A stretch of DNA of 49,988 nt. Source: an uncultured Eubacteriales bacterium (GTDB lineage Bacteria; Bacillota; Clostridia; Christensenellales; Aristaeellaceae). The notes beneath the pieces are model-generated. The model was not told the DNA's origin. It saw nothing but the letters and a program-made list of their open reading frames with translations, and did no database searches. The stretch lies in NCBI GenBank assembly GCA_902785105.1, contig CACZXF010000046.1, positions 1 through 49,988 on the forward strand, in the 5' to 3' direction. Of the stretch, positions 1-49,988 are shown one piece after another. Within the stretch, counting starts at the first letter, position 1; every line of letters begins with the position of its first letter. Made by a program: the position numbers and the translations under genes.

Positions 1-91
1 GTTAGTACAACATTTCCCCTGAATATGCCTGCTTTTCTCGTTTTTTCCACCTCTGACAATCCCTTGTTTGGATTTCTCTCTACTTTTTAGA

Positions 92-166
92 GGTTCCCTT
101 GAGGGGAAGGTGGCGCGAAGCGCCGGATGAGGTGAAACCCCGTCTCCTCGACAAATTCCAACTTAT
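92..166. repeat. B-type intergenic repeat, right half only
   Basis: It holds the palindrome TTCCCTTGAGGGGAA, the hairpin GGCGCGAAGCGCC, GGATGAGGTG, and the end motif CTCCTCGACAAATTCCAACTTA. The left half is missing or degraded. The same module recurs at least eight more times in the window. Confidence 0.8.
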
Positions 167-177
167 TGTTATACGAA

Positions 178-212
178 ACAGGCTGCCGCGCCATCACAGC
201 GCGGCAGCCTGT
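178..212 (-). terminator. Strong hairpin downstream of the ACT/MBL gene
   Basis: A perfect 14-bp stem (ACAGGCTGCCGCGC and its complement) encloses a 7-base loop. It starts 7 bases past the stop of the minus-strand gene. The downstream tract on that strand (TTTCGTAT) is only moderately U-rich, so termination efficiency is uncertain. Confidence 0.65.
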
Positions 213-218
213 CTGCGT

Positions 219-1661
219 TTACTTTTGTGCCTGGACCTCATAGTCCTTCTTCATGCCGTGGGCACCGAAGATCTGCCACTGGCCGACGCCTAAGCGCTGC
301 ATGATGGCGCGGCGCTCCTCGGCGCAGAGGGCCGGGTCGGTGTCCACGGAGGTCATGAGGACGGGGGCGTACTGGTTGTAGCTGGCCTGTTCCCGGGTCA
401 TGCCGTGGACATTGACGTAGATGTCGCCGGTGAAGGCAATGTGATGGGCGAAGTCGATGAGGACCGTTTCCCCCTTCAGGTGGCCGCCCTTGCCCTGATA
501 GACCTCGAAACACAGCTCGCCAAAGGAGAAGAAGCCCATCTGCATCAGCGGGGCCTCCTGCTCGAAGGGGACGTCCCAGAGGGCCTTGACTTTATCGGGG
601 TCCGGGGGCGCGTAGCGGGTCAGGGTCTTGCAGATGCTGATGTAGGGCTTATGTACGGGGTTCTGTTCCCGGAAACCGTTCTTGCCCGCGTGTTCCAGCG
701 CCAGACATTCTTTCGACTTTGCGCTGGCCAGCACCTCGTCGAACAGGGGGAGCAGGCCGCAGTGGTCCAGGTCAGCGTGGGTGATGAATATGCGCTTGCG
801 CATGGTCTCCCAGTCGGGGAAAAGCTTGCGGAAGATGGCCTCCATCTCATGGCGGTAGAGGGCATAGCCGCAGTCGATGAAGAGGACTTCGCCGTTGCTC
901 TCCAATATGGCGGTGTTGCTGCCGCAGGGCGGCTCGATGAGGGTGATGAGGGTGTTTTCGGTGATCCTGTGGCGGGAGATGCGGGGGGAGAAGGCGCTGC
1001 CCCGACAGACCGCCAGCAGCTCGGCGAAGCGGCTGATGCTCTCGAAGGTCTTGTAGGGGGAGAGGCCCTTTTCATCCAATAATTGCATCACCAGGTTGGA
1101 GTTGACCAGCAGGCCGTCCCGGTACTGCTCCGGGAGTTCAAGGGTCTGCATCAGCCCGGAGACGAAGGAGCGATAGAATATGCTGTTGTCGTAGACTTTC
1201 TCCGAGTGGTTGTAGTCGATGACCCGCACCGGGCACAGCGCCTCCACCCGTGAAAGGAACGCTTTCAATACCGCCTCGTCCTCCACGAACAGGCCCATCT
1301 TGAAAGCCTGGTAGTCGGTGCCGTTCTCCTGGGAGCTGATGTAGGAGATGTTCAGCCGGTATTCGCTGATGAGCCGCAGCACCTCGGCCACGCTGCCCGG
1401 CTCGTCTCTCAGGTGGAATTCCAATAATACGATGCCCTTGTCGTGCTCCGCCGTGGGGAGATAGCCGATTTGGGAGAGCTGCGCGTCCGCCGCGGACAGT
1501 TGCGACTCGCTGCCCTCGGCGTCGATGAACAGCGTGTGGGAGTCCACCGCCTTGTTGTAGCTCACCCGCGTGATGTTGATGCCCAGCGCCGCGAAGCACT
1601 CGCTGGCCTTCAGAAACGCGCCGATGTGGTTGGGCATGGTGGTGATGTAGGTCTTTTTCAT
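219..1661 (-). CDS. ACT-domain / metallo-beta-lactamase-fold hydrolase
   Basis: The 480-residue protein has two ACT-like ligand-binding domains (about residues 1-72 and 76-150), a linker, and a metallo-beta-lactamase fold from about residue 235. The metal motif reads HADLDH at 295-300, where the family usually has HxHxDH, so one His ligand is replaced by Asp. A later FTGD strand and a GAHG near the C-terminus fit the remaining ligands. ACT domains usually sense amino acids, so an amino-acid-controlled hydrolase is inferred; the substrate is unknown. The start is supported by GAAAGG about 9 bases upstream. No signal peptide is seen, so it is probably cytoplasmic. It follows the SH3 gene on the same strand with about 70 bases between. 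Confidence 0.75.
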   Translation of the reverse strand: MKKTYITTMPNHIGAFLKASECFAALGINITRVSYNKAVDSHTLFIDAEGSESQLSAADAQLSQIGYLPTAEHDKGIVLLEFHLRDEPGSVAEVLRLISEYRLNISYISSQENGTDYQAFKMGLFVEDEAVLKAFLSRVEALCPVRVIDYNHSEKVYDNSIFYRSFVSGLMQTLELPEQYRDGLLVNSNLVMQLLDEKGLSPYKTFESISRFAELLAVCRGSAFSPRISRHRITENTLITLIEPPCGSNTAILESNGEVLFIDCGYALYRHEMEAIFRKLFPDWETMRKRIFITHADLDHCGLLPLFDEVLASAKSKECLALEHAGKNGFREQNPVHKPYISICKTLTRYAPPDPDKVKALWDVPFEQEAPLMQMGFFSFGELCFEVYQGKGGHLKGETVLIDFAHHIAFTGDIYVNVHGMTREQASYNQYAPVLMTSVDTDPALCAEERRAIMQRLGVGQWQIFGAHGMKKDYEVQAQK

Positions 1662-1688
1662 GGGCTGCGCCTTTCATAGGATATTGAA

Positions 1689-1713
1689 GGGACGCCATTC
1701 CTCCTGGCGTCCC
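1689..1713. terminator. Hairpin between SH3 gene and ACT/MBL gene
   Basis: A 9-bp perfect stem (GGGACGCCA / TGGCGTCCC) with a 7-base loop lies between the two minus-strand genes. A T-run follows only on the plus strand, so its role as a minus-strand terminator or attenuator is uncertain. Confidence 0.35.
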
Positions 1714-1732
1714 TGCGATGGCTTTTTATTGA

Positions 1733-2677
1733 TCAGTTCGCGTCCGTGGCCCATTCCCCGGAATAGACGGACCAGGAGATCTCGGAGACCTTGCCGCTGG
1801 CGTCGGCGATGATGTTGATGAAGGAATCAAAGCCGTTGACGTTCACGGGGGCGTCCACATCGGCATAGTGCTGGAAGGACGCGCCGAGGATGTTGTCGGC
1901 GCGGGCCAGACCGGCGGCGGTGAGGGTGGAGATAGCGGTGTCCATGTCCAGACCCACGCTGACGCCATAGACCGCATAGCCCTCGCCGGTGATGCGGAAG
2001 TGCTTGGTGATGGTGTCGCCGCCGATGAGCAGGGTCTCATTGGAGTAGGTCTCCGGGAAATCTGTGTTCTCCTCCAGGCGGTGGTTGGTCAGAGACAGGG
2101 CGGCGGCAGTGTCGGCCAGACCCTTCAGATACCAGGTGGACAGCTCCACCGGCTGGGGCACGCCGAAGGTGGGCGGGATCACCGTCTGGGCGCTGTCGGA
2201 ATTGGCGGCGGCCTCCTGGGCCTCCTCGCCGGTGCTCTCTACCGTGGTCTCCCCGGTGTTGTCCACCGTGGTCTCGACCGGGGCGTTCTCCAGGCTCTCC
2301 TCCGGTTCGGGCGTGGGCGTGGCCTCCGGGGCCTTGGTGGTCGTGGGCTTCTTCGTAGAGCTGGACTTCTTGCTGGAGCTGCTGGATGAGCTGGAGCTGG
2401 ACGAGCTGCCCGACAGCTTGGAATAGCGGGAGGACACCCAGCCCTTCTTGCCGTTGTACTTCACATGATACCACTTCACGCCGCGATAGTCGGTGCTGGT
2501 GTCGCCAAGGTAGGTCAGCTTCGTGCCGGAGCTGATGGCCGTGATCTTGCTGTAGTCCTTGCCGGGGCCCTTGCGCAGCCATACGTCGCCCGTGGTCCGC
2601 ACCGACGCGGCCAGCGCCGAAACGGACAGGCACGCGATCACCAGCAGCGTCAGCAGCGCGCTTGCAAACTTCTTCAT
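1733..2677 (-). CDS. Secreted SH3-domain protein with Ser/Thr/Pro linker
   Basis: The 314-residue protein has a signal peptide (about 1-22, ending SALA), then a bacterial SH3 domain (about 23-82, with VWLRKGPG and GWVSSRYSKL motifs). A low-complexity linker follows (Ser run, Lys/Thr, then Pro/Glu/Thr-rich, about 83-160), and then a C-terminal domain of about 150 residues that I do not recognise. Bacterial SH3 domains commonly bind cell-wall peptide, so an envelope location is inferred. The chosen ATG follows AAAGGAG with good spacing. An upstream in-frame extension is encoded by the neighbouring B-type repeat and was rejected. Confidence 0.75.
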   Translation of the reverse strand: MKKFASALLTLLVIACLSVSALAASVRTTGDVWLRKGPGKDYSKITAISSGTKLTYLGDTSTDYRGVKWYHVKYNGKKGWVSSRYSKLSGSSSSSSSSSSSSKKSSSTKKPTTTKAPEATPTPEPEESLENAPVETTVDNTGETTVESTGEEAQEAAANSDSAQTVIPPTFGVPQPVELSTWYLKGLADTAAALSLTNHRLEENTDFPETYSNETLLIGGDTITKHFRITGEGYAVYGVSVGLDMDTAISTLTAAGLARADNILGASFQHYADVDAPVNVNGFDSFINIIADASGKVSEISWSVYSGEWATDAN

Positions 2678-2704
2678 ATGTGCTTCTCCTTTGATTTTGT
2701 AGTG

Positions 2705-2960
2705 TTTATAAAGTGGAAGTTGCCGGGGTGAGCGGGAGTCCACCTCATCCGGCGCTTCGCGCCACCTTCCCCTCAAGGGGAAGGCTTTTGGTTACCTGGC
2801 AGCCCAGACCCTTGCCTTCCCCTTGAGGAGCATCGAGCGCCCGGAAAACAGTCCAGTGAACTGTTTTCAGCGAGATGGGGCCGGCAGGCCCGTGTTTGGT
2901 GCCCGTGAGGGGGCGGATGAGGTGGTCTCGAACGACACCCCGACAAATCCTCGTTTATCG
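2705..2960. repeat. B-type intergenic repeat, full with diverged right arm
   Basis: The left end motif is TTTATAAAGTGGAAGTTGCC, followed by the CACCTCATCCGGCGCTTCGC arm and the CCTTCCCCTCAAGGGGAAGG palindrome. The right arm contains extra sequence (GGGGCCGGCAGGCCCG and AAAACAGTCCAGTGAACTG) related to the 28.3 and 30.2 kb copies. It ends near CGACAAATCCTCGTTTATCG. Confidence 0.8.
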
Positions 2961-2979
2961 ACGTTCCCACAGCTCCCCA

Positions 2980-4290: not shown

Positions 4291-4340
4291 CATTTCCTCC
4301 TTTTTTATGGAATTGAAAACTGACGATTTGGTCTGTTCCT

Positions 4341-4487
4341 GACAAATTGGAATTTGTCGAGCAGTCAAACCAACCTTGTAGGGGCGCCGTTTCGGCGCCC
4401 GCCCCTAACGAAACGCATCGTCATACCCGGCGGGCGGCGCAACGCCGCCCCTACAGGAGAGTAGGCATCTCCCCGTCAGTTTATATC
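4341..4487. repeat. A-type intergenic repeat
   Basis: The left end GACAAATTGGAATTTGTC is a perfect small hairpin. The core is a GTAGGGGCGCCGTTTCGGCG arm, a short spacer, and the inverted GGCGGCGCAACGCCGCC arm ending CCCCTACAGG. The right end is a degenerate CTCCCCGTCAGTTTAT. Confidence 0.85.
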
Positions 4488-4700
4488 CGAAATTTGAACC
4501 CGCTGTCCATATTCCATCACATTTATTATACAACATAATGCGTTCGACATTGTGACATGTTTTGGGCTGACTGGCTATAAAAATAAGGCGGCAGGCCATG
4601 TATAAACATGCAGATTTTTGCAATTGTGCCATTATTTCCCTTTGAATCAGTATATTTATACATTTAACCTGCATATTTTGTTAAATCTTCTGAATATCTA

Positions 4701-4729
4701 TTGAATTGGAGCGCATATGGTTGTATAAT
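4701..4729 (+). promoter_or_regulatory. Sigma-A type promoter for the amino acid transporter
   Basis: TTGAAT, a 17-base spacer, then TATAAT. It lies 53 bases upstream of the binding-protein start. The leader carries a small GCGGC/GCCGC hairpin before the AGGAGG ribosome site. Confidence 0.75.
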
Positions 4730-4782
4730 TTGACTGATTAAAGCGGCAGAGCGCCGCCGAGACAATCAGGAGGTAATTTACC

Positions 4783-5529: not shown

Positions 5530-5551
5530 TCCATATCATATCTGATCTGAG

Positions 5552-5608: not shown

Positions 5609-5700
5609 CAACCTTGTAGGGGCGGCGTTTCGCCGCCCGCCCCGCACGACGAAACGCTGCAGAGAACGCGGGCGGCGAAACGCCGCCCCTACAGGCTTGG
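5609..5700. repeat. A-type intergenic repeat core, symmetric arms
   Basis: Both arms are of one variant: TTGTAGGGGCGGCGTTTCGC at the left and its near-complement ending CGCCGCCCCTACAGG at the right. The GAYAAA end motifs are lost. It sits inside the transporter operon. Confidence 0.85.
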
Positions 5701-7249: not shown

Positions 7250-7563
7250 CAGGCGGTAGTCCACCTCATCCGGCGCTTTGCGCCACCTTCCCCTCAAGGG
7301 GAAGGCTTTTGGCTGTCGGTAAACTAATACTCTTTGGCATCTAAAACCTATACATCTACGGGCGTCTTTTCCGCCGTCGCGTTGCTTCGCTTCGGTCAAC
7401 GTAGCGCTGCTACGCCTCCCTCCGCTCAGCTTAGCGCCGACGAAAAATCCATCCCGTATATGTACATGTTTTAGAAGCCAAATAGTATAACCCCTGCCTT
7501 CCCCTTGAGGGGAAGGTGCCCGTGAGGGCGGATGAGGTGGATTCCCGCTCACACCCCGTTTAT
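7250..7563. repeat. B-type intergenic repeat split by a second palindrome
   Basis: The left arm (CACCTCATCCGGCGCTTTGC, CCTTCCCCTCAAGGGGAAGG) and right arm (CCTTCCCCTTGAGGGGAAGG, GTGCCCGTGAGGGCGGATG) are about 185 bases apart. Other copies usually have 30-60 bases between the palindromes. The right end reaches the 3' end of spoIVA. The 365-base gap between genes here holds only the terminator and repeats. Confidence 0.8.
7327..7488. repeat. Imperfect long palindrome nested in the B-type repeat
   Basis: The left arm begins AATACTCTTTGGCATCTAAA; the complement of the right arm begins ATACTATTTGGCTTCTAAAA. Both continue through TATAC/ATATACGGG to a GC-rich centre containing GCTTCGCTTCGG. By eye the arms match at roughly three quarters of positions over about 60 bases. 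No protein is encoded. Confidence 0.65.
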
Positions 7564-10436: not shown

Positions 10437-10518
10437 CTGTAGGGGCGGCGTTTCGCCGCCCGCCGGGTACCTCGCTTTGCATCGTAGAAGGCGGGCGCCG
10501 AAACGGCGCCCCTACGGG
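10437..10518. repeat. A-type intergenic repeat core, mixed arms
   Basis: The left arm is CTGTAGGGGCGGCGTTTCGC; the right arm is the other variant, GGCGCCGAAACGGCGCCCC. End motifs are not recognisable. It lies in the leader between a possible extended -10 (TGGTAGAAT near 10370) and the next gene. Confidence 0.82.
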
Positions 10519-11298: not shown

Positions 11299-11302
11299 AA
11301 AA

Positions 11303-11684
11303 CAAACAGGGATTTGTGGGGGAGCACCACGGGCAATTGCTGCCGCGCATAGGCACCGGTCTTTGGGGGCCATAGATCCGAGCCCCCAAAGCCCTGCGTT
11401 GCGTTTCTTATATTTCCACGTTCGAGGCGACGACTTTTTGCCCCATAGATCCAAGGGCAAAAAGTCTGTGTTTTGGGGCTACAACGAAGTTTTTGAGGTC
11501 GTGCTTTTTGACCTCAAAAACGTCGCCTTCCGCCAACAAATCAATAGGAACGCAACATAGGTCCTGGGGGGCTCGGACCTATGGTCCCCCAGGACCGGTC
11601 ACCTAAACGCGGCAGCAATTGCCCGCGGGTGCAACCCGCCAAAAATTGCCCGCGGGTGCAACCCGCCAAATTCCAATTTGCCGG
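11303..11684. repeat. Large nested-hairpin repeat element
   Basis: The end motifs (ACAGGGATTTGTGGGGGAG and CCGCCAAATTCCAATTTGCC) match the other repeats. Inside is an outer 16-bp perfect inverted repeat, GGGCAATTGCTGCCGC (11331-11346 and 11609-11624). Within it are four hairpins with 10-12 bp perfect stems at 11361-11391, 11432-11466, 11489-11521 and 11560-11596. The first two share a CATAGATCC loop. A 27-base unit is tandemly duplicated at 11617-11643 and 11644-11670. No coding potential is evident in this 412-base gap. Confidence 0.85.
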
Positions 11685-13244: not shown

Positions 13245-13260
13245 GGATGTGGTTTTATTT

Positions 13261-13419
13261 GCAAATTGGAATTTGTCGGGGAGTCAAACCAACCTTGTAG
13301 GGGCGCCGTTTCGGCACCCGCCCCCCCCCAACGAAACGCATCGTCCTACCCGGCGGGCGGCGCAACGCCGCCCCTACAGGAGCGTGTGCATCTCCCCTGA
13401 AAAAGCCCCGTTTATCGAC
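13261..13419. repeat. A-type intergenic repeat
   Basis: The left end is CAAATTGGAATTTGTCGGGG, then the GTAGGGGCGCCGTTTCGGCA arm, a run of C, the inverted GGCGGCGCAACGCCGCC arm, and the end motif CCCCGTTTATC. It abuts the 3' end of the M16 protease gene. Confidence 0.85.
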
Positions 13420-16879: not shown

Positions 16880-16986
16880 GATAAACAGGAAGATGTCGAA
16901 GAGTCACGTGCTCTCCTGTAGGGGCGGGCGCCGAAACGGCGCCCCTACAGGGATAGTTTGTCTCCCCGACAACTTCCCATTTATCC
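16880..16986. repeat. A-type intergenic repeat, collapsed to one arm
   Basis: The ends are GATAAACAGGAAGATGTC and CCCCGACAACTTCCCATTTATC. Only one palindromic arm remains between them (TGTAGGGGCGGGCGCCGAAA through CGGCGCCCCTACA), as expected after deletion between the two arms. Confidence 0.82.
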
Positions 16987-18193: not shown

Positions 18194-21100
18194 GCCTCTC
18201 CCTCCTTTTCAGAGGTGTCCGCCCGCTGGGGATAGAGGGCGTTCAGGTCGATGGTGCCGTCGTCGATGAGCTTTAAGAGGATGTCCACGAACTGCGGGTC
18301 GAACTGTGTGCCCCGGCCCTTGCGCATTTCATTGAGCACATAGCCGAAGTCCATCTGGCGGCGGTAGACGCGGTTGGCGGTCATGGCGTCGAAGGCGTCG
18401 GCTACGCCGATGATGCGGCCGTAGACCGGAATTTCTTCCCCCTTCAGACCGGCGGGATAGCCCCTGCCGTCGTAGCGCTCGTGGTGGTACAGGGTGCCGT
18501 CGATGACGTTCTCGATCAGCGTGAATTCCTTCAGTATCGCCGCGCCGCGGGTGACGTGGGACTTCATGATGGCGTATTCCTCGTCGGTCAGCCGGTCGGG
18601 CTTGTTAAGTATGCGGTCCGGTATGCCGATCTTGCCGATGTCGTGGAGCAGGGCGGCGCGGCGGAGGTTCTCGCATTCCTTCTCGCTGAATCCCAGCTCC
18701 CTGGCGATCTGCACCGAATAGATGGAGACGCGCTTCGAGTGCTGGCTGGTGCGGCCGTCCTTGGCGTCCACGGCTCTGGCGATGGCCATGACCGTCTCGT
18801 TGCCCATCTGGGCCTGCCTGCGGGCGATTTCGAGCTGATGCTCCTGGATCTCCATGGCGCGTTTGGTCTGCCGCCACTGTATGAACCAGGTGATCCACAT
18901 CACGGCCAGCATGGGCACGAGCATCAGGTAGATCACGAAGCCCCGGCTGTTGTAGATGGCCCGCTCCTTGCGGAGGATGAAGTCGCGCTCCTCTAAGATG
19001 TCGGTCTGGTTGTTGTCGAACACCGCCAGGCGGAGGGTGTAGTCCCCCGAGGGCAGGTTGGTATAAACGATCATGCCGAGATTGCTCTGGGACATGATGG
19101 TCCACTGGCTGTCGAAGCCCTCCAGCATGTAGCCCACGCTGGGCTCCTGGATGGAGTAGTTCAGGATTTCGGGGTACAGCTCGATGCGGCTGACGTCGTG
19201 CTCCACCTCGATGGGCCCGCCGGTCTCCACGGTGCTCAGCTCGCCGTCCAGGCGGATGGTGGGCACCCACATGCGGTAGCGGCTCACCTGGGCGGTGTAG
19301 TCCTCGGTGTCGATGATGTAGACGCCCTTGTCGCAGGGCAGGAACAGGGCGTTTGCCCCGTCGTAATAGCTGAAGGCGTTGGCGGTCAGCGCCCCGTTGA
19401 GGCCGCGCTTGGCGTCCAGCAGCTCATAGCGCATGCCCTCCGCGTCGTTCAGCACATCCTCCCGGTCCACCACGTAGATGCCGGAGCTGCTCATGACGAA
19501 CAGCTTGCCGTCCTCCCGGGCCCAGAGGGTGTAGTTGTTGTAATAGGGGAAGTTTTTCAGCGCGTGGATGCTGTAGTCCGTATCCATGACGCACAGGCCA
19601 TTGCTGGCGACGATGTAAACCTTGCCGGTGGGCTCATCCAGCACCGTGCGCAGCACCACGCCGGACTTTAAGCCGTCCTCGTCGTTCTGGACGGGCTTGA
19701 GCACACGGGTGATGGCCTGATCTTCCAGCACGGCGATGCCGCCTCCGTTGGTCCCGGCCAGCACCGCGCCATCGGCGGTCTCCATCAGGGAAAGTATGAC
19801 GGTGTTGGGCAGGCCGTCGTGCTCCGTGACGGTCCTGATGACCTGATGGTCCCGGATGAAGCACACGCCGCCGTTGCCGCCCACGGCGATGGTGCCGTCG
19901 CTCAGCTCGATGACCACGCGGGTGCGAGGGAAGCAACCCTCCTCCTCGGAATAGGTGTGGGCGGTGCCGTCCTTCTCAAATTCCAGCAGGCCGCCGCCGT
20001 AGGTGCAGACCCACATGTTCTCCCGGGAGTCCGTCAGCAGGCAGCGGATGCGGCTGCCCCTAAGGCGCTCGGTGATGGCGTTGTAGAGGGGGTAGCGGCA
20101 GGCGTTGTTGACGGCGTCCAGCCCCTTGTCCGTGCCGAAGTAGTAGGAATCCCGCCAGCGGGTGACGGCGTTCACCACCCGGCTGGACAGGCCCGCGGCG
20201 GTGTAGACGTCCTTGAAGGAGGACGGCGCCATGCGGAACAGGCCCAGGCGGGAGGAGGTGAACCAGAGATTGCCCTGATAGTCCACCAGCATGTTGTCGA
20301 TGGAGTTGTTGAAGGCGTTGGTGTTGATGAGGTGGTAGCGGTCGGCGTCGTCCACGTAGGCGATGCCGTTGTCCGCGATGATGAAGAAGTCGCCGCCCTC
20401 CATGAAGTACATGTCGTTGATGCTCTTCAGGCTCTGGGTGGTGCGGGTCTCCACCGGCTCAAAGCCGCCGTTGCCCACCTCGAAAACGTCGATGTGGTCC
20501 GCGGAGGTGCTGGCCAGCAGCCGCCCGTCGGGAGCGAAGGCGCAGGACTTGTAGATTTCGCCCTCGGTCATGCGGTTGAGGGCGCTGACGATGCGGCCTC
20601 GCTCCATCAGGAACAGGCGGCCGTCCGAGGTCACCGCGGCCACATGACCCTTGTCGTCGGCGGCGCTCTTTTCGCACTCGCTGATCTCCCAGAGGGTGTT
20701 GAACTTCTTCAGGCCGCTGTTCAGCGTCAGCACCTGCATACTGCCGGAGGTGCCGATGTAGTAGTAGCCGTCGCTGCTCTCCACGATGGAGCGCACCGAA
20801 TTGGCGGGGAGGCCGTCGGCCTCGTCCACCACGCTCACCACCTTCTCGTCGATGAGTATGGACAGGCCATTGTCGTTGGAGCCGATCCACAGGCGGCCCT
20901 CCTCGTCCACATAGAGGCAGTTGACGTTGAACACGGAGTCCAGATCCTGCCGGCGGAACTCGCGGCCGTTGTAGCGGTAGAGGCCGTTGTAGGTGCCGAT
21001 CCACAGCAGGCCGTCGCTGGTCTGGGCGATGTCGTTGGCCTCGCCGCAGGGCAGGCCGTTGTTGCTGGAATAGACGGTCTGGACGTAGTCGTTGTAGTCG

Positions 21101-21809: not shown

Positions 21810-21961
21810 GATAAATGGGGATTTATCAGGGCGTTACCCGCTCTCCTGTAGGGGCGGCGTTGCGCCGCCCGCCGGGTAGGACGATGCGTTTCGTTGAGGG
21901 CGGGCGCCGAAACGGCGCCCCTACAGGGTTGGATTGACTCCTCGATAAACTTCAATTTATC
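21810..21961. repeat. A-type intergenic repeat, reversed orientation
   Basis: The ends are GATAAATGGGGATTTATC and GATAAACTTCAATTTATC, each a perfect small hairpin. The GTAGGGGCGGCGTTGCGCCG arm comes first and the GGCGCCGAAACGGCGCC arm second. Confidence 0.87.
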
Positions 21962-22943: not shown

Positions 22944-23043
22944 GCATTTGCGGCAGGAAAAAGCCATTACAATTTGTAGATGTAAATGACAGTTTCAAGG
23001 CGGAAATGAGACATGCGGGGGGACTGCATGGAGCGGTTGGAAA

Positions 23044-23191
23044 AATGAAGTTTATCAAAGAGACAAACTATCCCTGTAGGGGCGCCGTTTCGGCGCCCGC
23101 CCTCCTTTGAGACGGAACGTTCTATCGGGCGGGCGGCGCAACGCCACCCCTACAGGAGAGCGGGAAACTCCACGATAAATCCCCGTTTATT
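23044..23191. repeat. A-type intergenic repeat
   Basis: The left flank is AATGAAGTTTATCAAAGAG, then the TGTAGGGGCGCCGTTTCGGC arm, the inverted GGCGGCGCAACGCCACC arm, and the end CGATAAATCCCCGTTTAT. The rest of the 22.9-23.2 kb gap shows nothing beyond the promoter. Confidence 0.85.
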
Positions 23192-23510: not shown

Positions 23511-23532
23511 TTTGATGACCTCTTTCTGTTTG

Positions 23533-23670
23533 GTAAATTAGAATTTGTTGGACAATTCATAATTCATAATGCGTAATTCGTAATTATGAGAATGCTGACA
23601 CGATAGGTATTTCCCAATTACGCATTATGAATTATGAATTACGCATTACCCCGATAAATCCCCGTTTATC
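23533..23670. repeat. Repeat with shared ends and AT-rich palindromic core
   Basis: The ends are TAAATTAGAATTTGTTGG and CCCCGATAAATCCCCGTTTATC, as in the A and B elements. The core is a different AT-rich inverted repeat: ATTCATAATTCATAATGCGT left, and ATTACGCATTATGAATTATG right. Confidence 0.82.
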
Positions 23671-26965: not shown

Positions 26966-26973
26966 AGACTCAC

Positions 26974-27124
26974 TAAATTGAAGTTTATCGGGGAGACAAA
27001 CCAACCCTGTAGGGGCGCCGTTTCGGCGCCTGCCCCCTGCGAAACGTAGCGTTCTGTTGGGCGGGCGGCGCAACGCCGCCCCTACAGGAGAGTGCGTGTC
27101 TCCCCTACAAATCCCTGTCTATCA
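26974..27124. repeat. A-type intergenic repeat
   Basis: The left end is TAAATTGAAGTTTATCGGGG, then the TGTAGGGGCGCCGTTTCGGC arm, the inverted GGCGGCGCAACGCCGCC arm, and the right end CCCCTACAAATCCCTGTCTATC. It fills the space between the NlpC gene and cobT. Confidence 0.85.
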
Positions 27125-28235: not shown

Positions 28236-28450
28236 GATAAACAGGGATTTGCCGGGGTGTTTGTTCGAGGCCACCTCATCCGCCCTCACGGGCACTTGAC
28301 AAGGGCCTGCCGGCCCCATCTCACTGAAAACAGAGGGGAAGGCAAGGGGCTGGGAACGACGGTGCCCAAAAGCCTTCCCCTTGAAGAGAAGGTGCCCCGA
28401 AGGGGCGGATGAGGTGAAACCTCGTCTCCCCGACAACTTCCGATTTATCG
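28236..28450. repeat. B-type intergenic repeat, variant with GGGCCTGCCGGCCCC
   Basis: The ends are GATAAACAGGGATTTGCCGG and CCCCGACAACTTCCGATTTATC. The left arm holds CACCTCATCCGCCCTCACGG and a GGGCCTGCCGGCCCC insert; the right arm has GGTGCCCCGAAGGGGCGGAT. It lies between cobT and the cobU-like gene. Confidence 0.85.
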
Positions 28451-28479
28451 CGCTGATTGTTGAATACAGGAGGGAAGCT

Positions 28480-29010
28480 ATGAGCACCTTCATCTCCGGC
28501 GGCTGCAAGAACGGGAAGTCCTTCTATGCCCAGCGGATTGCGAAGGCGGGCGGATTGCCGCTCTACTACATCGCCACGATGATCCCCCACGATTCGGAGG
28601 ATGATGCCCGAATATTGCGTCATCAAAAGGAGCGCGAGGGCTGGGGCTTTGAGACGCTGGAATGTGGGGCCGACATACTTTCCTGCCTGGAAAAGGCTGA
28701 CCCGGCGGGGTTCTTTCTGCTGGACAGCGTGACGGCGCTGCTGTCCAATGAGATGTTCACCGCCGAGAGGATGAACCCGGATGCGCCGGGGAAGATTGCC
28801 GGGGAGCTGGTGGAGTTTGTCAAACGCGCGCCCAGGACGGTGCTGGTTTCGGACTACATCTATTCCGACGCAAATCTCTACGACGAATGGACGGAGGCCT
28901 ACCGCCGGGGGCTGGCCCGCATCGACAGGGCGCTGGCCCGTGCCTGTGACGATGTTTTGGAGGTCGTCCACGGGCAGGTCATCGTCCACAAGGGGAGGGT
29001 GCCGCTGTGA
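28480..29010 (+). CDS. cobU: Adenosylcobinamide kinase/guanylyltransferase-like protein
   Basis: The 176-residue protein has an N-terminal CobU-type P-loop GGCKNGKSFYAQ and the RHQKEREGWGFETLE segment holding the His that carries GMP in this family. DSVTALLSNEMF follows the usual order. Its C-terminal third is diverged: the usual NEVGxGIVP motif reads SDYIYSDANLYDE. It should phosphorylate adenosylcobinamide and transfer GMP. AGGAGGG lies 5-6 bases before the ATG. The stop overlaps cobS by 4 bases. A second, short CobU-like gene downstream keeps the C-terminal motif lost here. Confidence 0.82.
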   Translation: MSTFISGGCKNGKSFYAQRIAKAGGLPLYYIATMIPHDSEDDARILRHQKEREGWGFETLECGADILSCLEKADPAGFFLLDSVTALLSNEMFTAERMNPDAPGKIAGELVEFVKRAPRTVLVSDYIYSDANLYDEWTEAYRRGLARIDRALARACDDVLEVVHGQVIVHKGRVPL

Positions 29011-29748: not shown

Positions 29749-30114
29749 ATGATACTGATTACCGGGGGCAGCTATCAGGGCAAACTGGATTACGCCAAGG
29801 CAAGATTTGCTTTGACGGACGATGATATTTGCATCGGAAAGATTGATTTTGATAAAAAATGCCTGGCCTATATCGACCGATACGCGCTGGAAGCCGTAAA
29901 GAGCGGTTTGGAACCCGTCGACATCTTCCGGGCGAACGTCGATGCTTTGCGCAACAAAATCATCATCACCACGGACATCTCCTCGGGCATCGTCCCCATG
30001 GACCCGGCGCTGCGGGCCTGGCGGGAGGCCTGCGGGCGGATGAACAGCTATCTGGCTTCTCAGGCCGACGAGGTCTGGCGGCTGTTTTGCGGGATACCGC
30101 AGAGGCTCAAATGA
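29749..30114 (+). CDS. Short CobU-like protein
   Basis: The 121-residue protein starts with a P-loop-like ITGGSYQGKLDYAKARF and ends with the C-terminal CobU pattern TDISSGIVPMDPALRAWREA, GRMNSYLASQADEVWRLFCG and IPQRLK. The central part with the guanylylated His is missing, so it is about two thirds of normal length. Such short forms may pair with, or act separately from, full CobU. Here it carries the C-terminal motif that the upstream CobU lacks, so functional complementation is possible but unproven. GGAGG precedes the ATG. Confidence 0.75.
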   Translation: MILITGGSYQGKLDYAKARFALTDDDICIGKIDFDKKCLAYIDRYALEAVKSGLEPVDIFRANVDALRNKIIITTDISSGIVPMDPALRAWREACGRMNSYLASQADEVWRLFCGIPQRLK

Positions 30115-30130: not shown

Positions 30131-30322
30131 TATAAACGGGGATTTGCCGGGGTGTTTGTTCGAGGCCACCTCATCCGCCCTCACGGGCACTTGACAAGGG
30201 CCTGCCGGCCCCATCTCACTGAAAACAGTCACGACGGTGCCCAAAAGCCTTCCCCTTGAGGGGAAGGTGCCCCGAAGGGGCGGATGAGGTGAACCTTCGT
30301 CTCCCCGCCAAATTCCAATTTG
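30131..30322. repeat. B-type intergenic repeat, variant with GGGCCTGCCGGCCCC
   Basis: The ends are TATAAACGGGGATTTGCCGG and CCCCGCCAAATTCCAATTTG. It is very close in sequence to the 28.2 kb copy, including the GGGCCTGCCGGCCCC insert, so the two are recently related or homogenised. It lies within the cob gene run. Confidence 0.85.
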
Positions 30323-30342
30323 AAGAACCATAGAATGAAGCT

Positions 30343-33094: not shown

Positions 33095-33245
33095 GATAAA
33101 CGGGGATTTTTCGGGGCGTTACCCGCTCTTCTGTAGGGGCGGCGTTGCGGCGCCCGCCCGACAGAACATGCCGTCTTGCAGAGGGGCGGGCGCCGAAACG
33201 GCGCCCCTACAGGGATAGTTTGTCTCCTCGATAAGCTTCAATTAT
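33095..33245. repeat. A-type intergenic repeat, reversed orientation
   Basis: The left end is GATAAACGGGGATTTTTCGG; then the TGTAGGGGCGGCGTTGCGGC arm and the GGCGCCGAAACGGCGCC arm; the right end is GATAAGCTTCAATTAT. Confidence 0.85.
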
Positions 33246-33320
33246 ATTAAACAACCCTAACGATTATAATATATGACAGTTAGACGCGGTTTATGTGGAA
33301 AAAGTTGCCTGAAACCTTTA

Positions 33321-35036: not shown

Positions 35037-35220
35037 CGGTAAACAGGGAATTATCGAGATGTTTGTTCGAGACCACCTCATCCGCCCTCACGGGCACCTT
35101 CCCCTCAAGGGGAAGGCAGGGGCTGGGAACGGCGGGCCTAAAAGCCTTCCCCTTGAGGGGAAGGTGGCGCGAAGCGCCGGATGAGGTGAAATCCCGTGTC
35201 CCGACAACTTCCAATTTGTC
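35037..35220. repeat. B-type intergenic repeat, full
   Basis: The left end is GTAAACAGGGAATTATCG, then the CACCTCATCCGCCCTCACGG arm and both CCTTCCCC palindromes. The second arm is the GGCGCGAAGCGCC variant, and the right end is CCCGACAACTTCCAATTTGTC. Confidence 0.87.
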
Positions 35221-37295: not shown

Positions 37296-37327
37296 TGTAA
37301 GTAACAGATTATTATGGGGGCTGTGCG

Positions 37328-37460
37328 GTAAACGGGGATTTATCGGGGTGTGCGTTCGAGTCCACCTCATCCGCCCTCACGGGCACCTTCCCCTCAAGGG
37401 GAAGGCAAGGGGTTAAGAACGGTGGCCCCAAAAGCCTTCCCCTTGAGGGGAAGGTGCCCC
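37328..37460. repeat. B-type intergenic repeat, right end missing
   Basis: The left end is GTAAACGGGGATTTATCGGG, then the CACCTCATCCGCCCTCACGG arm and both palindromes. It stops at GAAGGTGCCCC without the second CCTCATCCG arm or right end. It would be transcribed as part of the galT leader. Confidence 0.83.
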
Positions 37461-37491
37461 CGCACCGCCTCAAAAGCAAAGAGGTGTTTAC

Positions 37492-39042: not shown

Positions 39043-39260
39043 GATAAACAGGGATTTGTCGGGGAGTTTGTTCGAGACCACCTCATCCGCCCTCACGGGC
39101 ACCTTCCCCTCAAGGGGAAGGCAAGGAGTTAAGAACGGTGGCCCCAAAAGCCTTCCCCTTGAGGGGAAGGTGCCCCCAAAAGCCTTCCCCTTGAGGGGAA
39201 GGTGCCCCGAAGGGGCGGATGAGGTGGATTCCCGCTCACCTCTGCAAATTCCAATTTATC
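39043..39260. repeat. B-type intergenic repeat with internal tandem duplication
   Basis: The ends are GATAAACAGGGATTTGTCGG and GCAAATTCCAATTTATC. A 32-base unit containing the CCTTCCCCTTGAGGGGAAGG palindrome is tandemly doubled at 39142-39173 and 39174-39205. Confidence 0.87.
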
Positions 39261-40365: not shown

Positions 40366-40520
40366 TAAAAGACAGGGATTTGTCGGGGCGTTTCCTGCTT
40401 TCCTGTAGGGGCGGCGTTGCGCCGCCCGTCCGGTAAAACGTGCCGTCTCACAGGAGGGCGGGCGCCGAAACGGCGCCCCTACAGGGATAGTTTGTCTCCA
40501 TGACAACTTCCAATTTGTTA
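40366..40520. repeat. A-type intergenic repeat, reversed orientation
   Basis: The ends are AAAGACAGGGATTTGTCGGG and GACAACTTCCAATTTGT. The TGTAGGGGCGGCGTTGCGCC arm comes first, GGCGCCGAAACGGCGCC second. Confidence 0.86.
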
Positions 40521-43443: not shown

Positions 43444-43448
43444 TCTTG

Positions 43449-44483: not shown

Positions 44484-44496
44484 ATGCAAGAACTCC

Positions 44497-44967: not shown

Positions 44968-44997
44968 AGTGTATCGCTCCTTGTCACGGGTAGGGGG

Positions 44998-45149
44998 TTA
45001 AACAGGGAATTATCGGGGAGTTACCCGTTCTCCTGTAGGGGCGGCGTTGCGCCGCCCGCCCGATAGAACGCGACGTCTCGCAAGAGGCGGGCGCCGAAAC
45101 GGCGCCCCTACAGGGTTGGTCTGACGCCCCGATAAACTTCAATTTACCG
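44998..45149. repeat. A-type intergenic repeat, reversed orientation
   Basis: The left end is TTAAACAGGGAATTATCGGG; then the TGTAGGGGCGGCGTTGCGCC arm and the GGCGCCGAAACGGCGCC arm; the right end is CCCCGATAAACTTCAATTTA. It separates prfA from the GNAT gene. Confidence 0.86.
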
Positions 45150-45162
45150 AACCAACTGAAAA

Positions 45163-46254: not shown

Positions 46255-46287
46255 TTGATCGCTCCTTCTTGACGGGTTATGCTGCGG

Positions 46288-46474
46288 GACAAATTGGAAG
46301 TTGTAGGGGTGAGCGGGTAAGCCACCTCATCCGCCCCTTCGGGGCACCTTCCCCTCAAGGAGAAGGCTTTTGGGCACCGTCGTTCTCACCCCTTGCCTTC
46401 CCCTTGAGGGGAAGGTGCCCGTGAGGGCGGATGAGGTGGATTCGAATGACATCTCGACAAATCCCTGTTCATCA
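46288..46474. repeat. B-type intergenic repeat, full
   Basis: The ends are GACAAATTGGAAGTTGTAGG and TCGACAAATCCCTGTTCATC. The left arm is the GCCCCTTCGGGGC variant, the right arm the GCCCGTGAGGGC variant. It separates prmC from prfA. Confidence 0.86.
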
Positions 46475-46483
46475 ACTTACCCC

Positions 46484-47326: not shown

Positions 47327-47350
47327 GGTATAACAACTCACAATCAAAAG

Positions 47351-47498
47351 AATTGAAAATTGATAATTGAAAATTGACAATTGACAATTGTCTCGGCTTT
47401 GAAGGGTCAAAGTTCCTCTTCACATCCCAAGGACAGTGTTTTGCGGTCTGCTTTGCCGTTCCTTTAATTTTCAATTTTCAATTCTAAATTTTCAATTT
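47351..47498. repeat. AT-rich inverted repeat element
   Basis: The left part is AATTGAAAATTGATAATTGA and the right part is AATTTTCAATTTTCAATTCT, around a centre of about 80 bases that is not symmetrical. The right end provides the stop codon of the DUF1385 gene. A related AATTGAAAATTG run recurs at about 49880. Confidence 0.7.
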
Positions 47499-48417
47499 AT
47501 AAATCGTTTTCCCTCGCTGCGTTGAAGGCGCAGAGGGCGACCTCCACCATCTGGTCGTTGGGCTCCCGGACGAACAGGCGCTCCAGGCCGCGATAGGGGG
47601 CCAGCAGGGCGCTCAGCGGGTGGGTGAGCTTGAGGCGCTCCAGGGCCTGTATGGGCTCGTTGACGATGCCCGCCACGGCGAACACCGTCAGCACCCGCAC
47701 CAGCAGCTGCACCGGCAGGGTGAACGTGCGAATGCAGGCGAAGGCGATGAGGGACAGGGCCAGCACCACCATCAGGAAGGCGGTGTCGGAGCGGTGGTAG
47801 ATGGGCTCGGCGTCCACAGCCTCGTCCAGCGTGGGCTCGCGGCGGCGGTCCTCATAGGCGTTGAGCACCTTGTTGATGGCTCCGCGATACATGCACAGCC
47901 GCTTCACGATCCGCAGCCGACCGCACAGGAACAGCGCCAGCCACGTGCCGAGGATGCGAACGGCGCACATCACGCCGTTGGTCCACTGCCGGGTGAGGCT
48001 GAGTCCGGGCAGCAAAAACCGCTCCACAGCCAGGGGCAGGCCCCAGATGAGGCCCAGCAGCAGTATGGGTATGGCCAGACCGCTTATAAAGCCCACGAGG
48101 CTCTCCGGATGGAACTGGAACATGTCCGCCGTGCCCCGCTCCAGCCGGTTGCCCTTGCTGACGCGCTGGGGATAGAGCTCGGCGGATTCCGAGATGCCGT
48201 CCACCAGACCAAAGGTTGAGAGCACCAGCCGCTGCATACCCCTGACGAAGGGCGTGCGGCTCATGGCCTGCCGGAGGGGACGGCGCTCCCGGCGGATGCG
48301 CAGGGCGATGTCCTTTTCCTCCCGGCGCACCGCGAAGGCCGTGGCGCTGCCCACGGTGAACCGCGCCCCCTCCGCCACCGGCGCGCAGTGGATCGGCGTT
48401 TTGAGATGCTTGGACAT
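47497..48417 (-). CDS. DUF1385 family membrane protein, motif-degenerate
   Basis: The 306-residue protein starts with a DUF1385-like GSATAFAVRREEKDIALRIR and PFVRGMQRLV, then a hydrophobic region with five or so membrane helices, consistent with the family. The conserved family motifs are altered: the usual YHGAEHK reads YRGAINKVLNAYE, and the usual HPRCGTSF reads YHRSDTAF, so the invariant His and Cys residues are gone. The family is usually next to rpmE, prmC and prfA, as here, which supports the assignment. Function is unknown. AGGGGGAAA precedes the ATG. The stop lies in an AT-rich repeat. Confidence 0.82.
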   Translation of the reverse strand: MSKHLKTPIHCAPVAEGARFTVGSATAFAVRREEKDIALRIRRERRPLRQAMSRTPFVRGMQRLVLSTFGLVDGISESAELYPQRVSKGNRLERGTADMFQFHPESLVGFISGLAIPILLLGLIWGLPLAVERFLLPGLSLTRQWTNGVMCAVRILGTWLALFLCGRLRIVKRLCMYRGAINKVLNAYEDRRREPTLDEAVDAEPIYHRSDTAFLMVVLALSLIAFACIRTFTLPVQLLVRVLTVFAVAGIVNEPIQALERLKLTHPLSALLAPYRGLERLFVREPNDQMVEVALCAFNAARENDL

Positions 48418-48455
48418 GGGATTTCCCCCTGTTGATTGGAAATCAATATAATAAA

Positions 48456-48484
48456 ACAGCCCGGCGCGCTTAACGCGGGGCTGT
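48456..48484 (-). terminator. Second terminator after rpmE
   Basis: On the minus strand, ACAGCCC(C)GCG pairs with CGC-CGGGCTGT, then TTTTATTATATT. Strong. Confidence 0.8.
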
Positions 48485-48510
48485 GCGTGGCGCAGATGGA
48501 ATGAACGTCA

Positions 48511-48545
48511 AAAGCATCGACGAAGGCAGCCTTCGCCGATGCTTT
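48511..48545 (-). terminator. First terminator after rpmE
   Basis: A long near-perfect stem (AAAGCATCG, one mismatch, CGAAGG and complement) with a 3-base loop; minus-strand tail CTTTTGACG. It starts 7 bases past the stop. Confidence 0.78.
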
Positions 48546-48551
48546 ATCAGA

Positions 48552-48749
48552 CTACATGCCGTAGCGCTTCTTGAAGCGATCCACACGTCCGCCGGTATCA
48601 ACCAGCTTCTGCTTGCCGGTGTAGAAAGGATGGCACTTGGAGCAGATATCAACGCGCATCTCCTTCTTCACGGAACCGGTCTCGAAGGTCTCGCCGCAGA
48701 CGCAGCGCACGACCGCCTTGCCGTACTTCGGATGGATGTTTTCCTTCAT
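48552..48749 (-). CDS. rpmE: 50S ribosomal protein L31, zinc-binding type
   Basis: The 65-residue protein is L31 of the zinc (C+) form: [20 protein letters not shown], with Cys at CVC and [13 protein letters not shown], then [14 protein letters not shown]. It binds the central protuberance of the 50S subunit. GAGGTG lies 7 bases before ATG 48749; a GTG three codons earlier overlaps the ribosome site and is rejected. It has its own sigma-A promoter and two terminators, so it is an independent unit. Confidence 0.97.
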
Positions 48750-48820
48750 GGTTTTCACCTCGCAAAATTGGACTGTCGAATCTCAGGCGTACCCGGCATC
48801 CAACGAATCAGACAGCTACG

Positions 48821-48849
48821 ATTATACCATATGCCGCGGCCGGCGGCAA
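48821..48849 (-). promoter_or_regulatory. Sigma-A type promoter of rpmE
   Basis: On the minus strand: TTGCCG, 17 bases, TATAAT, about 72 bases before the ATG. Confidence 0.72.
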
Positions 48850-48891
48850 TGGGTTGGCTGAATTTTTACAATTATCACTTTGGGAGTTCAC

Positions 48892-48982
48892 GGTAAATTG
48901 GAATTTGTCGGGGAGACGAAACAACCCTGTAGGGGCGCCGTTTCGGCGCCCGTCACCCTGCGAAACTGCATGTTCTATCGGA
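48892..48982. repeat. A-type intergenic repeat, left half only
   Basis: The left end is GTAAATTGGAATTTGTCGGG, then the TGTAGGGGCGCCGTTTCGGC arm. The inverted second arm and right end are absent; the sequence becomes unique after about 48982. Confidence 0.8.
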
Positions 48983-49007
48983 TACTGGAATCCCCGAAAT
49001 GTCCGCC

Positions 49008-49040
49008 TGTCTGGACAGACACAGTGTTTTGTGTTATCAT
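49008..49040 (+). promoter_or_regulatory. Promoter-like site overlapping a palindrome
   Basis: TGGACA, 17 bases, TATCAT (one mismatch from consensus at each). The -35 lies within the palindrome TGTCTG-GA-CAGACA (49008-49021). The next gene begins about 250 bases downstream. Confidence 0.5.
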
Positions 49041-49160
49041 CTTTGCGAGAAAGGGGCACAATCGTTCGACAAAATGTGACCACTTTTATACGGAAATATG
49101 CTGAAAATACTCTCAGTTGCATAAAATGTGATGTATGCGCATGTATATTCGCTGTATATA

Positions 49161-49235
49161 TTCATTTGTTTTCACAAATGAACGCAGGAAAAACGCGAAA
49201 ATTGTCGTATAATTATTTACATATTCAGTGAATAT
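49161..49235. promoter_or_regulatory. Palindromes and -10 box upstream of the last gene
   Basis: TTCATTTGT-TTTC-ACAAATGAA is a perfect 9-bp hairpin (49161-49182). TATAAT lies at 49208-49213, and ATATTCA-G-TGAATAT is a perfect 15-base palindrome (49221-49235). The binding protein is unknown. Confidence 0.5.
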
Positions 49236-49294
49236 ACAATGGTGGGAACGCATATCATAGTATCACAGGAAAAACGTCCGGGAGGAATGGTAAC

Positions 49295-49810
49295 ATGGAG
49301 AAAATCAAGGCGAAACTGCCTGAACTGACGGCGCTGAATCAGCGCGAGAGGGCGCTGTTATGCGTGATAGCGGGACTGGTGGTGGCGCTGATCGTCGTGA
49401 CCTGTATATCCATCAATATACGGTTGAATATGCAGCAGGAATATACGGAGGTGCGCGACAAGCTGGGCGAGTCCCTCTATTCAAACCTGTATATGCTGAC
49501 CCAGACCTTTGACATGACCGCCGTGCCCAACGCGGATGTGAAGAATTCCATCATCCCCCAGATGAAGAATTACTTCATCGCCGCCACCACCCTCAACGAG
49601 CAGCTTTCGAACAGCTTCGGCACCCGCTACCAGGTGCTCACCGACGCCGACATCAGCACGATACGCACCACCTTCAATGCCTACGATTCCGCCTTCCGCT
49701 CCGACGCGCCCACGGACCTGGCCCAAGCTGACATGCAGGCCTGCATACAGCGCGTCCGCGAGCTGCTGAATTCCCGCTACAGCGAGGGTATATTGAAAGC
49801 TGGTCGATGA
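49295..49810 (+). CDS. Single-TM membrane protein, unknown function
   Basis: The 171-residue protein has a short basic N-terminus, one membrane helix (about 20-42; LLCVIAGLVVALIVVTCISI), and an external-facing helical domain of about 125 residues. The topology resembles sensor-input or envelope-associated proteins, but I recognise no family. GGGAGG lies about 11 bases before the ATG. It is the only gene in this part and is followed by a clear terminator, so it appears monocistronic. Its leader is unusually rich in palindromes. Confidence 0.7.
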   Translation: MEKIKAKLPELTALNQRERALLCVIAGLVVALIVVTCISINIRLNMQQEYTEVRDKLGESLYSNLYMLTQTFDMTAVPNADVKNSIIPQMKNYFIAATTLNEQLSNSFGTRYQVLTDADISTIRTTFNAYDSAFRSDAPTDLAQADMQACIQRVRELLNSRYSEGILKAGR

Positions 49811-49815
49811 AAAAA

Positions 49816-49836
49816 GCCGCCGAGGGCGGCTTTTTT
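49816..49836 (+). terminator. Rho-independent terminator
   Basis: GCCGCC-GAG-GGCGGC followed by six T and preceded by A-rich sequence, 5 bases past the stop. Confidence 0.92.
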
Positions 49837-49855
49837 CATGTGTTCCGGCAGCTCG

Positions 49856-49988
49856 ATAAACAGGGATTTATCGAGGTAAATTGAAAATTGAAAATTGAAA
49901 ATTGAGTTACCAGCTTGCAAACCCACCAACCAGTGTTGTTGTAGGGGCGGCGTTGCGCCGCCCGCCGGGTAATACGATACAATTCGCT
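49856..49988. repeat. Composite repeat running off the window end
   Basis: The left end GATAAACAGGGATTTATC is a perfect hairpin. It is followed by a triple AATTGAAA run, about 45 further bases, and the TGTAGGGGCGGCGTTGCGCC arm of an A-type core. The second arm is beyond the window. Confidence 0.8.

What the first reader, a model, noticed from the sequence alone, without database searches (positions are those of the whole stretch)
1..49988. About 25 mosaic intergenic repeats share ends but carry different cores
Elements at 4.3, 13.3, 21.8, 23.0, 27.0, 33.1, 40.4 and 45.0 kb (A core), 2.7, 28.2, 30.1, 35.0, 39.0 and 46.3 kb (B core), 23.5 kb (AT-rich core) and 11.3 kb (nested hairpins) all begin and end with the same small motif pointing inward. 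Yet the cores are unrelated. This implies either a common mobilisation signal at the ends, or targeting of new elements into old ones. Density is one per about 2 kb, all outside coding sequence. The design (paired inverted hairpin arms) recalls REP/BIME elements. I do not know a described family with these ends.
Basis: partly seen in the sequence, partly recalled or inferred. Interest (0 to 1): 0.75.

Follow-up and report, generated by a model that had tools for sequence, protein, structure and literature searches.

The report
Modular hairpin-ended mobile intergenic repeats
The gaps between genes of this uncultured gut bacterium hold many small non-coding mobile elements that share one pair of hairpin ends but carry interchangeable centres, which makes them a useful natural case for asking how bacterial repeats swap parts.

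Summary
The window has 16 two-ended elements, 5 one-ended ones and at least 3 cores without clear ends. The "same motif" is two versions of an 18-nt hairpin, LE and RE: 98 of 105 inward pairs in 849 kb of this genome are one LE plus one RE. LE (579 copies at up to 3 mismatches) is nearly confined to this species and one sister species. Core A is genus-wide and sits in other frames elsewhere. About a third of elements also carry an IS66-family terminal repeat outside the hairpins, with 8-bp target duplications: perfect in 19 of 34 pairs in the sister species, 5 of 23 here. I read them as IS66-type miniature transposons with exchangeable cores. Interiors look reassorted by short-tract recombination and do not track the IS66 repeats. 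Two gene junctions gained ends and core together; 10 of 105 frames are nearly coreless. How the interior becomes uncoupled from the outer repeats is unresolved. REP/RAYT membership is not supported.

The parts
2707..2959 (-). LE-B core-RE element with an extra hairpin module in the core
11301..11682 (+). LE-E core-RE element, nested hairpins
13260..13416 (-). LE-A core-RE element; IS66-like repeat on the LE side
16880..16985 (+). short A element with one A hairpin; both ends scored RE, the left one degenerate and LE-like by eye
21810..21961 (+). LE-A core-RE element, the query of the genus search
23039..23191 (-). LE-A core-RE element
23532..23670 (-). LE-F core-RE element; the core is AT-rich heptamer-like repeats
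26972..27123 (-). LE-A core-RE element
28236..28449 (+). LE-B core-RE element
30131..30324 (+). LE-B core-RE element
33095..33247 (+). LE-A core-RE element
35038..35220 (+). LE-B core-RE element
39043..39260 (+). LE-B core-RE element
40367..40519 (+). LE-A core-RE element
44997..45148 (+). LE-A core-RE element between RF1 and a GNAT gene, where 4 of 15 relatives have a 7-8 bp gap
46288..46473 (-). LE-B core-RE element between prmC and RF1, where 15 of 17 relatives have a gap of -1 to 7 bp
94..167 (+). half B core with an RE end
4341..4480 (-). A core with an RE end; the other end is degenerate
37327..37480 (+). LE end with the first part of a B core
48892..48985 (-). RE end with half an A core
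49855..49988 (+). LE end, heptamer (AATTGAA) layer, then an A core; runs off the window
5616..5692 (.). A core without recognisable ends
10439..10515 (.). A core without recognisable ends
7261..7560 (.). B core split by another small inverted-repeat element (7329-7486); ends degenerate or absent

Best explanation
These are non-autonomous miniature transposons of IS66 type, built from exchangeable parts. From outside in, a complete one has a 19-20-nt IS66-family terminal repeat (X), an 18-nt hairpin (LE on one side, RE on the other) followed by GGGG, a mostly palindromic core (A, B, C, heptamer repeats and others), and the mirror order on the other side. An IS66-type transposase acting in trans recognises X and inserts the element with an 8-bp target duplication (duplications are shown in the sister species and in a minority of copies here; the transposase step is inferred). 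After insertion X and the duplication decay, while the hairpin-to-hairpin interior is kept alike and reassorted by short-tract recombination between copies (supported by linkage decay and by X being uncoupled from the interior; gene conversion as the mechanism is inferred). Cores are modules that also occur in other frames. They enter by nested insertion or recombination and can be deleted from a frame (inferred).
For: X matches the end of IS66 loci L141, L145 and L150. Sister species G001: 34 inward X pairs in 359 kb, 8-bp duplication perfect in 19 and 7/8 in 5, with several core types including hairpin frames with A-, B- and C-like cores. Own genome: of 23 X pairs enclosing an LE or RE end, 5 have 8/8 and 3 have 7/8; of 27 X pairs without, one has 8/8 and the rest at most 4/8. 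At offsets 18-21 outside the hairpins X is on one side of 20 and both sides of 15 of 105 elements; at five control sets of offsets it is on one side of 4-6 and never on both. Whole elements were gained at two tight gene junctions. Interior reassortment: 674 of 1128 informative site pairs show all four combinations at least twice, neighbours are less incompatible than in shuffled order (p 0.0006-0.0024), and r2 falls from 0.154 to 0.036. X distance 0.53-0.54 against interior distance 0.18-0.19, almost uncorrelated. Ten frames under 100 bp.
Against: 70 of 105 elements have no recognisable X on either side. X hits over 849 kb barely exceed shuffles (501 against 422), and 50 X pairs face inward against 38 outward, so X alone is a weak signal. 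Among A elements, those with low X scores are only slightly more diverged inside (rho -0.29, p 0.06). X-less elements show no duplication at the hairpin edges and only a weak one farther out (3 against 1.1 expected, p 0.06). The interior homology edge falls at the hairpin. Only a 73-aa IS66 fragment was found in this genome and none in G001. The IS66 loci that carry X show no LE hairpin motif, and L150 is below the Pfam cut-off.
Confidence: 0.55

Rival explanations
1. LE-core-RE is a mobile unit of its own. Its hairpins are its true ends, it inserts without target duplication, and it sometimes lands between, or is captured by, IS66-type repeats of several types.
For: Column identity among A elements rises from about 0.26 outside to about 0.8 within three to five nt of the hairpin edge. 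Two copies 98.7% identical inside have different X on both sides. In X-bearing elements the two X of one element match each other better than those of other elements (5 of 19 at 11/14 or more, 1.6 expected). Most elements lack X.
Against: No duplication, target motif or palindromic target at the hairpin edges. No empty X-X site was seen among 50 inward X pairs. No gene-bearing LE-RE pair in 849 kb. X sits at a fixed 19-20 nt, which fits one ancestral composite. In G001 the hairpins sit next to X in many of 42 hits, judged by eye.
Confidence: 0.27
2. REPIN-like elements: paired inverted palindromes moved by a RAYT (Y1) transposase.
For: Inverted hairpin pairs outside genes in very high copy; the A core begins with GTAG followed by a palindrome, as described for GTAG REPs (PMC3733652, passages). 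Y1 genes occur in 16 of 28 genomes of the genus.
Against: No Y1 gene in the own genome, nor in G001 or G011. In the 8 Y1 loci fetched none of the motifs A, B, C, LE or X was found; the other Y1 matches were not examined. By inspection, A-core counts do not follow Y1 counts.
Confidence: 0.06
3. The hairpins are kept by selection for a host function (terminator, mRNA 3' end or protein site), and mobility is only historical.
For: Hairpin loops and stems are conserved; elements sit in gene gaps; the small B-arm hairpins occur mainly as three fully paired types.
Against: By my own reading of gene directions (two of them uncertain), of 11 two-ended elements between co-directional genes in the window LE comes first along transcription in 6 and RE in 5. 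LE is absent from nearly all relatives searched. Many relatives have 0-8 bp at the same junctions.
Confidence: 0.08
4. Assembly or binning artefact of a metagenome-assembled genome.
For: The genome is a 131-contig draft.
Against: Elements lie inside contigs between conserved neighbours with synteny to named relatives. Related frames with perfect duplications occur in another assembly.
Confidence: 0.02

Closest known systems
BOX elements of Streptococcus (PMC3049150, passages read)
   Same: Composite repeats with defined ends and exchangeable inner modules. In S. suis two kinds of ends (boxA/C and boxE/F) surround the same boxB modules. BOX has terminal repeats and target duplications, and the repeats insert into one another.
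   Different: BOX inner parts are arrays of a few box modules; here several unrelated core types share one LE/RE pair. Ends, host and inferred transposase (IS66) differ; BOX sequence models were not searched.
Neisserial intergenic mosaic elements (dRS3-RS) (PMC3898611, passages read)
   Same: One short palindromic sequence, almost 700 copies, goes with families of 30-160-bp cores in intergenic DNA.
   Different: dRS3 is ATTCCC-N8-GGGAAT, is a filamentous phage integration target, and forms long arrays. LE and RE here are two asymmetric versions, normally one of each per element.
Correia elements and other IS-mobilised MITEs
   Same: Elements of 100-155 bp without a transposase, with terminal inverted repeats (PMC3898611, passages).
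   Different: Correia elements have 26-bp repeats and a TA duplication (same passages); here the outer repeat is of IS66 type with an 8-bp duplication, and most copies lack it.
REPINs / BIMEs (PMC3116915 and PMC3733652, passages read)
   Same: Inverted pairs of palindromes outside genes with conserved ends and variable spacers; the A core is GTAG-tagged.
   Different: No RAYT found in this genome, larger unrelated cores, and target duplications in X-bearing copies.
IS66 insertion sequences
   Same: Terminal repeat GTAACTGTTCAGTCC (or a close variant) in three IS66 loci of the genus; 8-bp duplication (that 8 bp is typical of IS66 is recalled, not looked up).
   Different: These elements carry no gene, and the IS66 loci with X lack the LE motif.

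Membership tests
IS66-type MITE | terminal repeats shared with an IS66 element | tested here: inconclusive
   On at least one side in 35 of 105 elements at 10/14 or better (4-6 of 105 at control offsets). X is the end of 3 of 13 IS66 loci examined. Not detectable in the rest.
IS66-type MITE | 8-bp target duplication | tested here: inconclusive
   Perfect in 19 of 34 X pairs in G001 and in 5 of 23 X pairs enclosing LE or RE here; not shown for X-less copies.
IS66-type MITE | no transposase gene inside | tested here: met
   Paired elements are 53-382 bp (pairs were defined as under 600 bp). Only two inward pairs of 600-6000 bp exist in 849 kb, neither LE with RE; their contents were not examined.
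IS66-type MITE | an active IS66 transposase in the same genome | tested here: not met
   Only one 73-aa fragment in G000 and none in G001. Both are drafts, and the two X-bearing IS66 copies in G006 break at contig ends.
REPIN / BIME | RAYT (Y1) transposase in the genome or beside the repeat | tested here: not met
   0 of 1 own genome; the 8 congener Y1 loci fetched lack the motifs.
NIME (dRS3-RS) | dRS3 palindrome ATTCCC-N8-GGGAAT at the ends | tested here: not met
   The end here is GATAAAY-N4-RTTTRTC; dRS3 pattern.
BOX | boxA / boxC end sequences | not tested
   No BOX model was searched; the likeness is architectural only.
Rfam RNA families | match above the gathering score | tested here: not met
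   0 matches in the window.

The most novel reading that the evidence does not exclude
A two-level cassette system: a hairpin-bounded interior (LE-core-RE) is exchanged as a unit between different IS66-type frames, and cores are exchanged between hairpin pairs, so one genome-wide population of about 150-250-bp mosaics keeps mixing ends, frames and cores by hairpin-stimulated recombination or by a still unknown hairpin-specific enzyme.
Probability: 0.25. Interest if true: 0.75.

Novelty: new variant of a known kind. Interest (0 to 1): 0.5.

Why it matters
Mosaic repeats such as BOX and NIMEs are known, but how different cores come to share ends is, to my knowledge, open. Here one genus offers the same core in different frames, the same frame with different cores, fresh copies with target duplications, and clean empty sites between tightly packed genes. 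That makes the question testable by comparing strains. It also gives an example of dispersed repeats only about 150 bp long that appear to recombine with each other inside one bacterial genome.

Tried and rejected
RAYT/REP origin: no Y1 gene in the own genome and no motif at the 8 congener Y1 loci fetched. Target duplication directly at the hairpins: none. Palindromic target for X-less elements: none (mean 7.28 against 7.25 matches in shuffles). Autonomous LE-gene-RE copy: none in 849 kb. Known RNA family: none. Plasmid or phage relatives of one A element: no match at E 1e-5. X-less elements simply being older: interior divergence differs little. The EM fit of X is not a clean estimate: one control offset re-found X itself and the other still fitted 24%, so counts rest, and the EM groups are used only to split elements. 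In the PHI-like test compensatory or multi-base changes in hairpins could mimic part of the neighbour effect. Literature, open-licence papers only: the listings showed nothing on these sequences or on modular IS66 MITEs; 54 listed 20 of 363 papers. The one MITE paper that names IS66 (PMC3189936, passages) lists IS66 fragments and two unrelated MITEs. led to the BOX paper and to the REPIN papers.
Full report
WHAT WAS CHECKED. The window is contig C46 of an unnamed 3.44-Mb draft genome (131 contigs). The close named relatives are rumen and gut Clostridia assemblies. The end hairpin GRTAAAYNNNNRTTTRTC is far above chance in the window at 0-2 mismatches. With weight matrices trained on ends from the window and 400 kb of the same genome, 849,136 bases hold 275 ends at 10 bits or more; a shuffled copy holds none at that threshold (4 at 8 bits, 1 at 12 bits).

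ANATOMY. There are two versions of the end. LE is GATAAACAGGGATTTGTC+GGGG; RE is GATAAATTGGAATTTGTC+GGGGAG. Of 105 inward pairs under 600 bp, 98 are LE with RE and 7 are scored RE with RE; 3 neighbouring pairs face outward and 2 are in tandem. 65 ends are unpaired, 16 of them near the edge of a fetched stretch. The window has 16 pairs and 5 unpaired ends. Pair lengths are 53-382 bp. Core counts by motif over 105 elements: A 48, B 28, C 3, E 2, A+B 2, A+D 1, D 1, F 1, unclassified 19. By eye, linkers between end and core go with the core type, so the shared part is the hairpin plus GGGG. Ten of 105 frames are under 100 bp and hold little or no core, one with only about 7 nt between the ends. 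None of the 37 window ends overlaps a Pfam domain match.

DISTRIBUTION. The LE pattern occurs 579 times in the genome at up to 3 mismatches, none for the reversed control. At up to 2 mismatches it occurs 393 times here, 35 in G001, 2 in G011 and 0 in the other 25 of 28 genomes of the genus. Of 297 genomes sampled from the order, five besides this one have a single hit each; the reversed control has two. Core A behaves differently. A query with ends and core matches 23 of 24 congeners, but nearly all listed congener matches (a capped list) cover about positions 48-126, that is the core; 19 of the 20 listed matches in the own genome run from hairpin to hairpin. In congeners the A core sits in other surroundings, for example GGGGCTGTCTC...GAGACAGCCCC-like frames in G007, G010 and G022, or inside heptamer repeats, hairpins and X in G001. 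In 849 kb of the own genome a loose search finds 77 A-like cores: 42 with both ends, 11 with one, 24 with none; at least one of the 24, at 19999 of the window, looks like a chance match in coding sequence.

ORTHOLOGOUS SITES. Between prmC and RF1, 15 of 17 relatives have a gap of -1 to 7 bp. One has 265 bp of other sequence and one, G001 (L068), has 385 bp that contain an X-hairpin-C element of its own inside another palindrome. This genome has 229 bp with a complete LE-B-RE element. Another set of loci adds two congeners with other gap sequence, 97 bp in L098 and 210 bp in L102. Between RF1 and the GNAT gene, 4 of 15 relatives have 7-8 bp, the other 11 have 27-254 bp of other sequence, and this genome has 195 bp with an LE-A-RE element. 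Ends and core therefore appear gained together at these two sites. By eye, short imperfect duplications lie about 14-20 nt outside the hairpins at both junctions (for example AAGGAACA/AAGGAGCG at RF1-GNAT); this is suggestive only.

THE OUTER LAYER. At 19-20 nt outside the hairpins a motif X (GTAACTGTTCAGTCC) is enriched: 14 and 13 elements on the left and 11 and 8 on the right score 10/14 or better at offsets 19 and 20, against 0-4 at other offsets from 14 to 49. Counting offsets 18-21, 15 of 105 elements have it on both sides, 20 on one and 70 on none; five control sets of offsets give none on both sides and 4-6 on one. X is the end of three IS66-family loci in G006 and G018, out of 13 IS66 loci in the genus; one of the three, L150, is below the Pfam cut-off. 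In G001, 34 inward X pairs were found in 359 kb (a few of odd length are chance); 19 have a perfect 8-bp duplication and 5 have 7/8, across several cores, with and without LE/RE-like hairpins. Here X alone is weak (501 hits against 422 in shuffles; 50 inward and 38 outward pairs). Of the 23 inward pairs that enclose an LE or RE end, 5 have 8/8 and 3 have 7/8; two of the 23 overlap another pair. Of the 27 that enclose none, one has 8/8 and the rest at most 4/8. Within 13-23 nt outside the hairpins, X-bearing elements reach 7/8 or better in 7 of 19 (0.8 expected); one-X elements in 4 of 43 (1.5 expected, p 0.055); X-less ones in 3 of 43 (1.1 expected, p 0.06).

UNCOUPLED LAYERS. Among A elements with X (20 on the left, 16 on the right), X sequences differ by 0.53-0.54 on average while interiors differ by 0.18-0.19, and the two are almost uncorrelated (rho 0.14 and 0.08). 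The most similar pair, 98.7% identical inside, has different X on both sides. Among 41 aligned A elements, 674 of 1128 pairs of informative sites show all four combinations at least twice, neighbouring sites are more compatible than in shuffled order (p 0.0006-0.0024), and r2 falls from 0.154 within 5 bp to 0.036 beyond 80 bp. The simplest reading is short-tract recombination between dispersed copies, which would keep interiors alike while X decays. The alternative is that LE-core-RE moves on its own. The data do not settle this.

WHO MOVES THEM. No Y1/RAYT gene was found in the own genome, and only a 73-aa IS66 fragment. No LE-gene-RE pair was found in a quarter of the genome; two inward pairs of 1.3 and 3.7 kb join like ends and were not examined further. 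No relative of one A element was found among plasmids or phages.

COMPARISON. In design this is closest to BOX elements, where different ends surround the same inner module and repeats insert into one another (PMC3049150, passages), and to NIMEs, where one palindrome goes with many cores (PMC3898611, passages). REPINs share the inverted-hairpin design (PMC3116915, passages), but their associated transposase was tested for and not found. I file the elements as a new variant of IS-mobilised mosaic MITEs, with the IS66 assignment well supported in the sister species and partial here.

Noticed in passing
7329-7486: A further small element with near-matching inverted ends (ACTCTTTGGCATCTAAAAC / GTTTTAGAAGCCAAATAGT) sits in the middle of the B core at 7.3-7.5 kb, a visible case of nesting.
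   Followed up: partly
L118-L137 (G001): The sister species layers its elements like an onion: X, hairpin, heptamer repeats (AATTAGG), a GCTGCCGCGC arm, then an A-like core.
   Followed up: partly
L044 1501-1550 and L124, L129, L132 (G001): A recurrent compact palindrome, GATTTGTCGGGC-ttt-GCCCGACAAATC, often next to X, may be an ancestral form of the hairpin end.
   Followed up: no
L169 6535-6699: An X-type MITE without LE/RE in the own genome (GTTACAGCTCAGCGTCC ends) has a perfect 8-bp duplication, pointing to a second X subtype.
   Followed up: partly
L067 12409-14119 (a named relative): A 1.7-kb insert with an apparent ORF and a C-like hairpin stretch lies between the GNAT and Sua5 genes.
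   Followed up: no
29749-30111: A short ORF matching only the C-terminal part of CobU follows CobS, while a full-length CobU match lies at 28381-29007.
   Followed up: no
window and fetched B cores: The small inner hairpin of B arms comes mainly in three fully paired types (CCCTCACGGG, GCGCTTCGCGC, CCCCTTCGGGG; 25, 16 and 13 of 58 in 849 kb), as if hairpins were swapped whole.
   Followed up: partly
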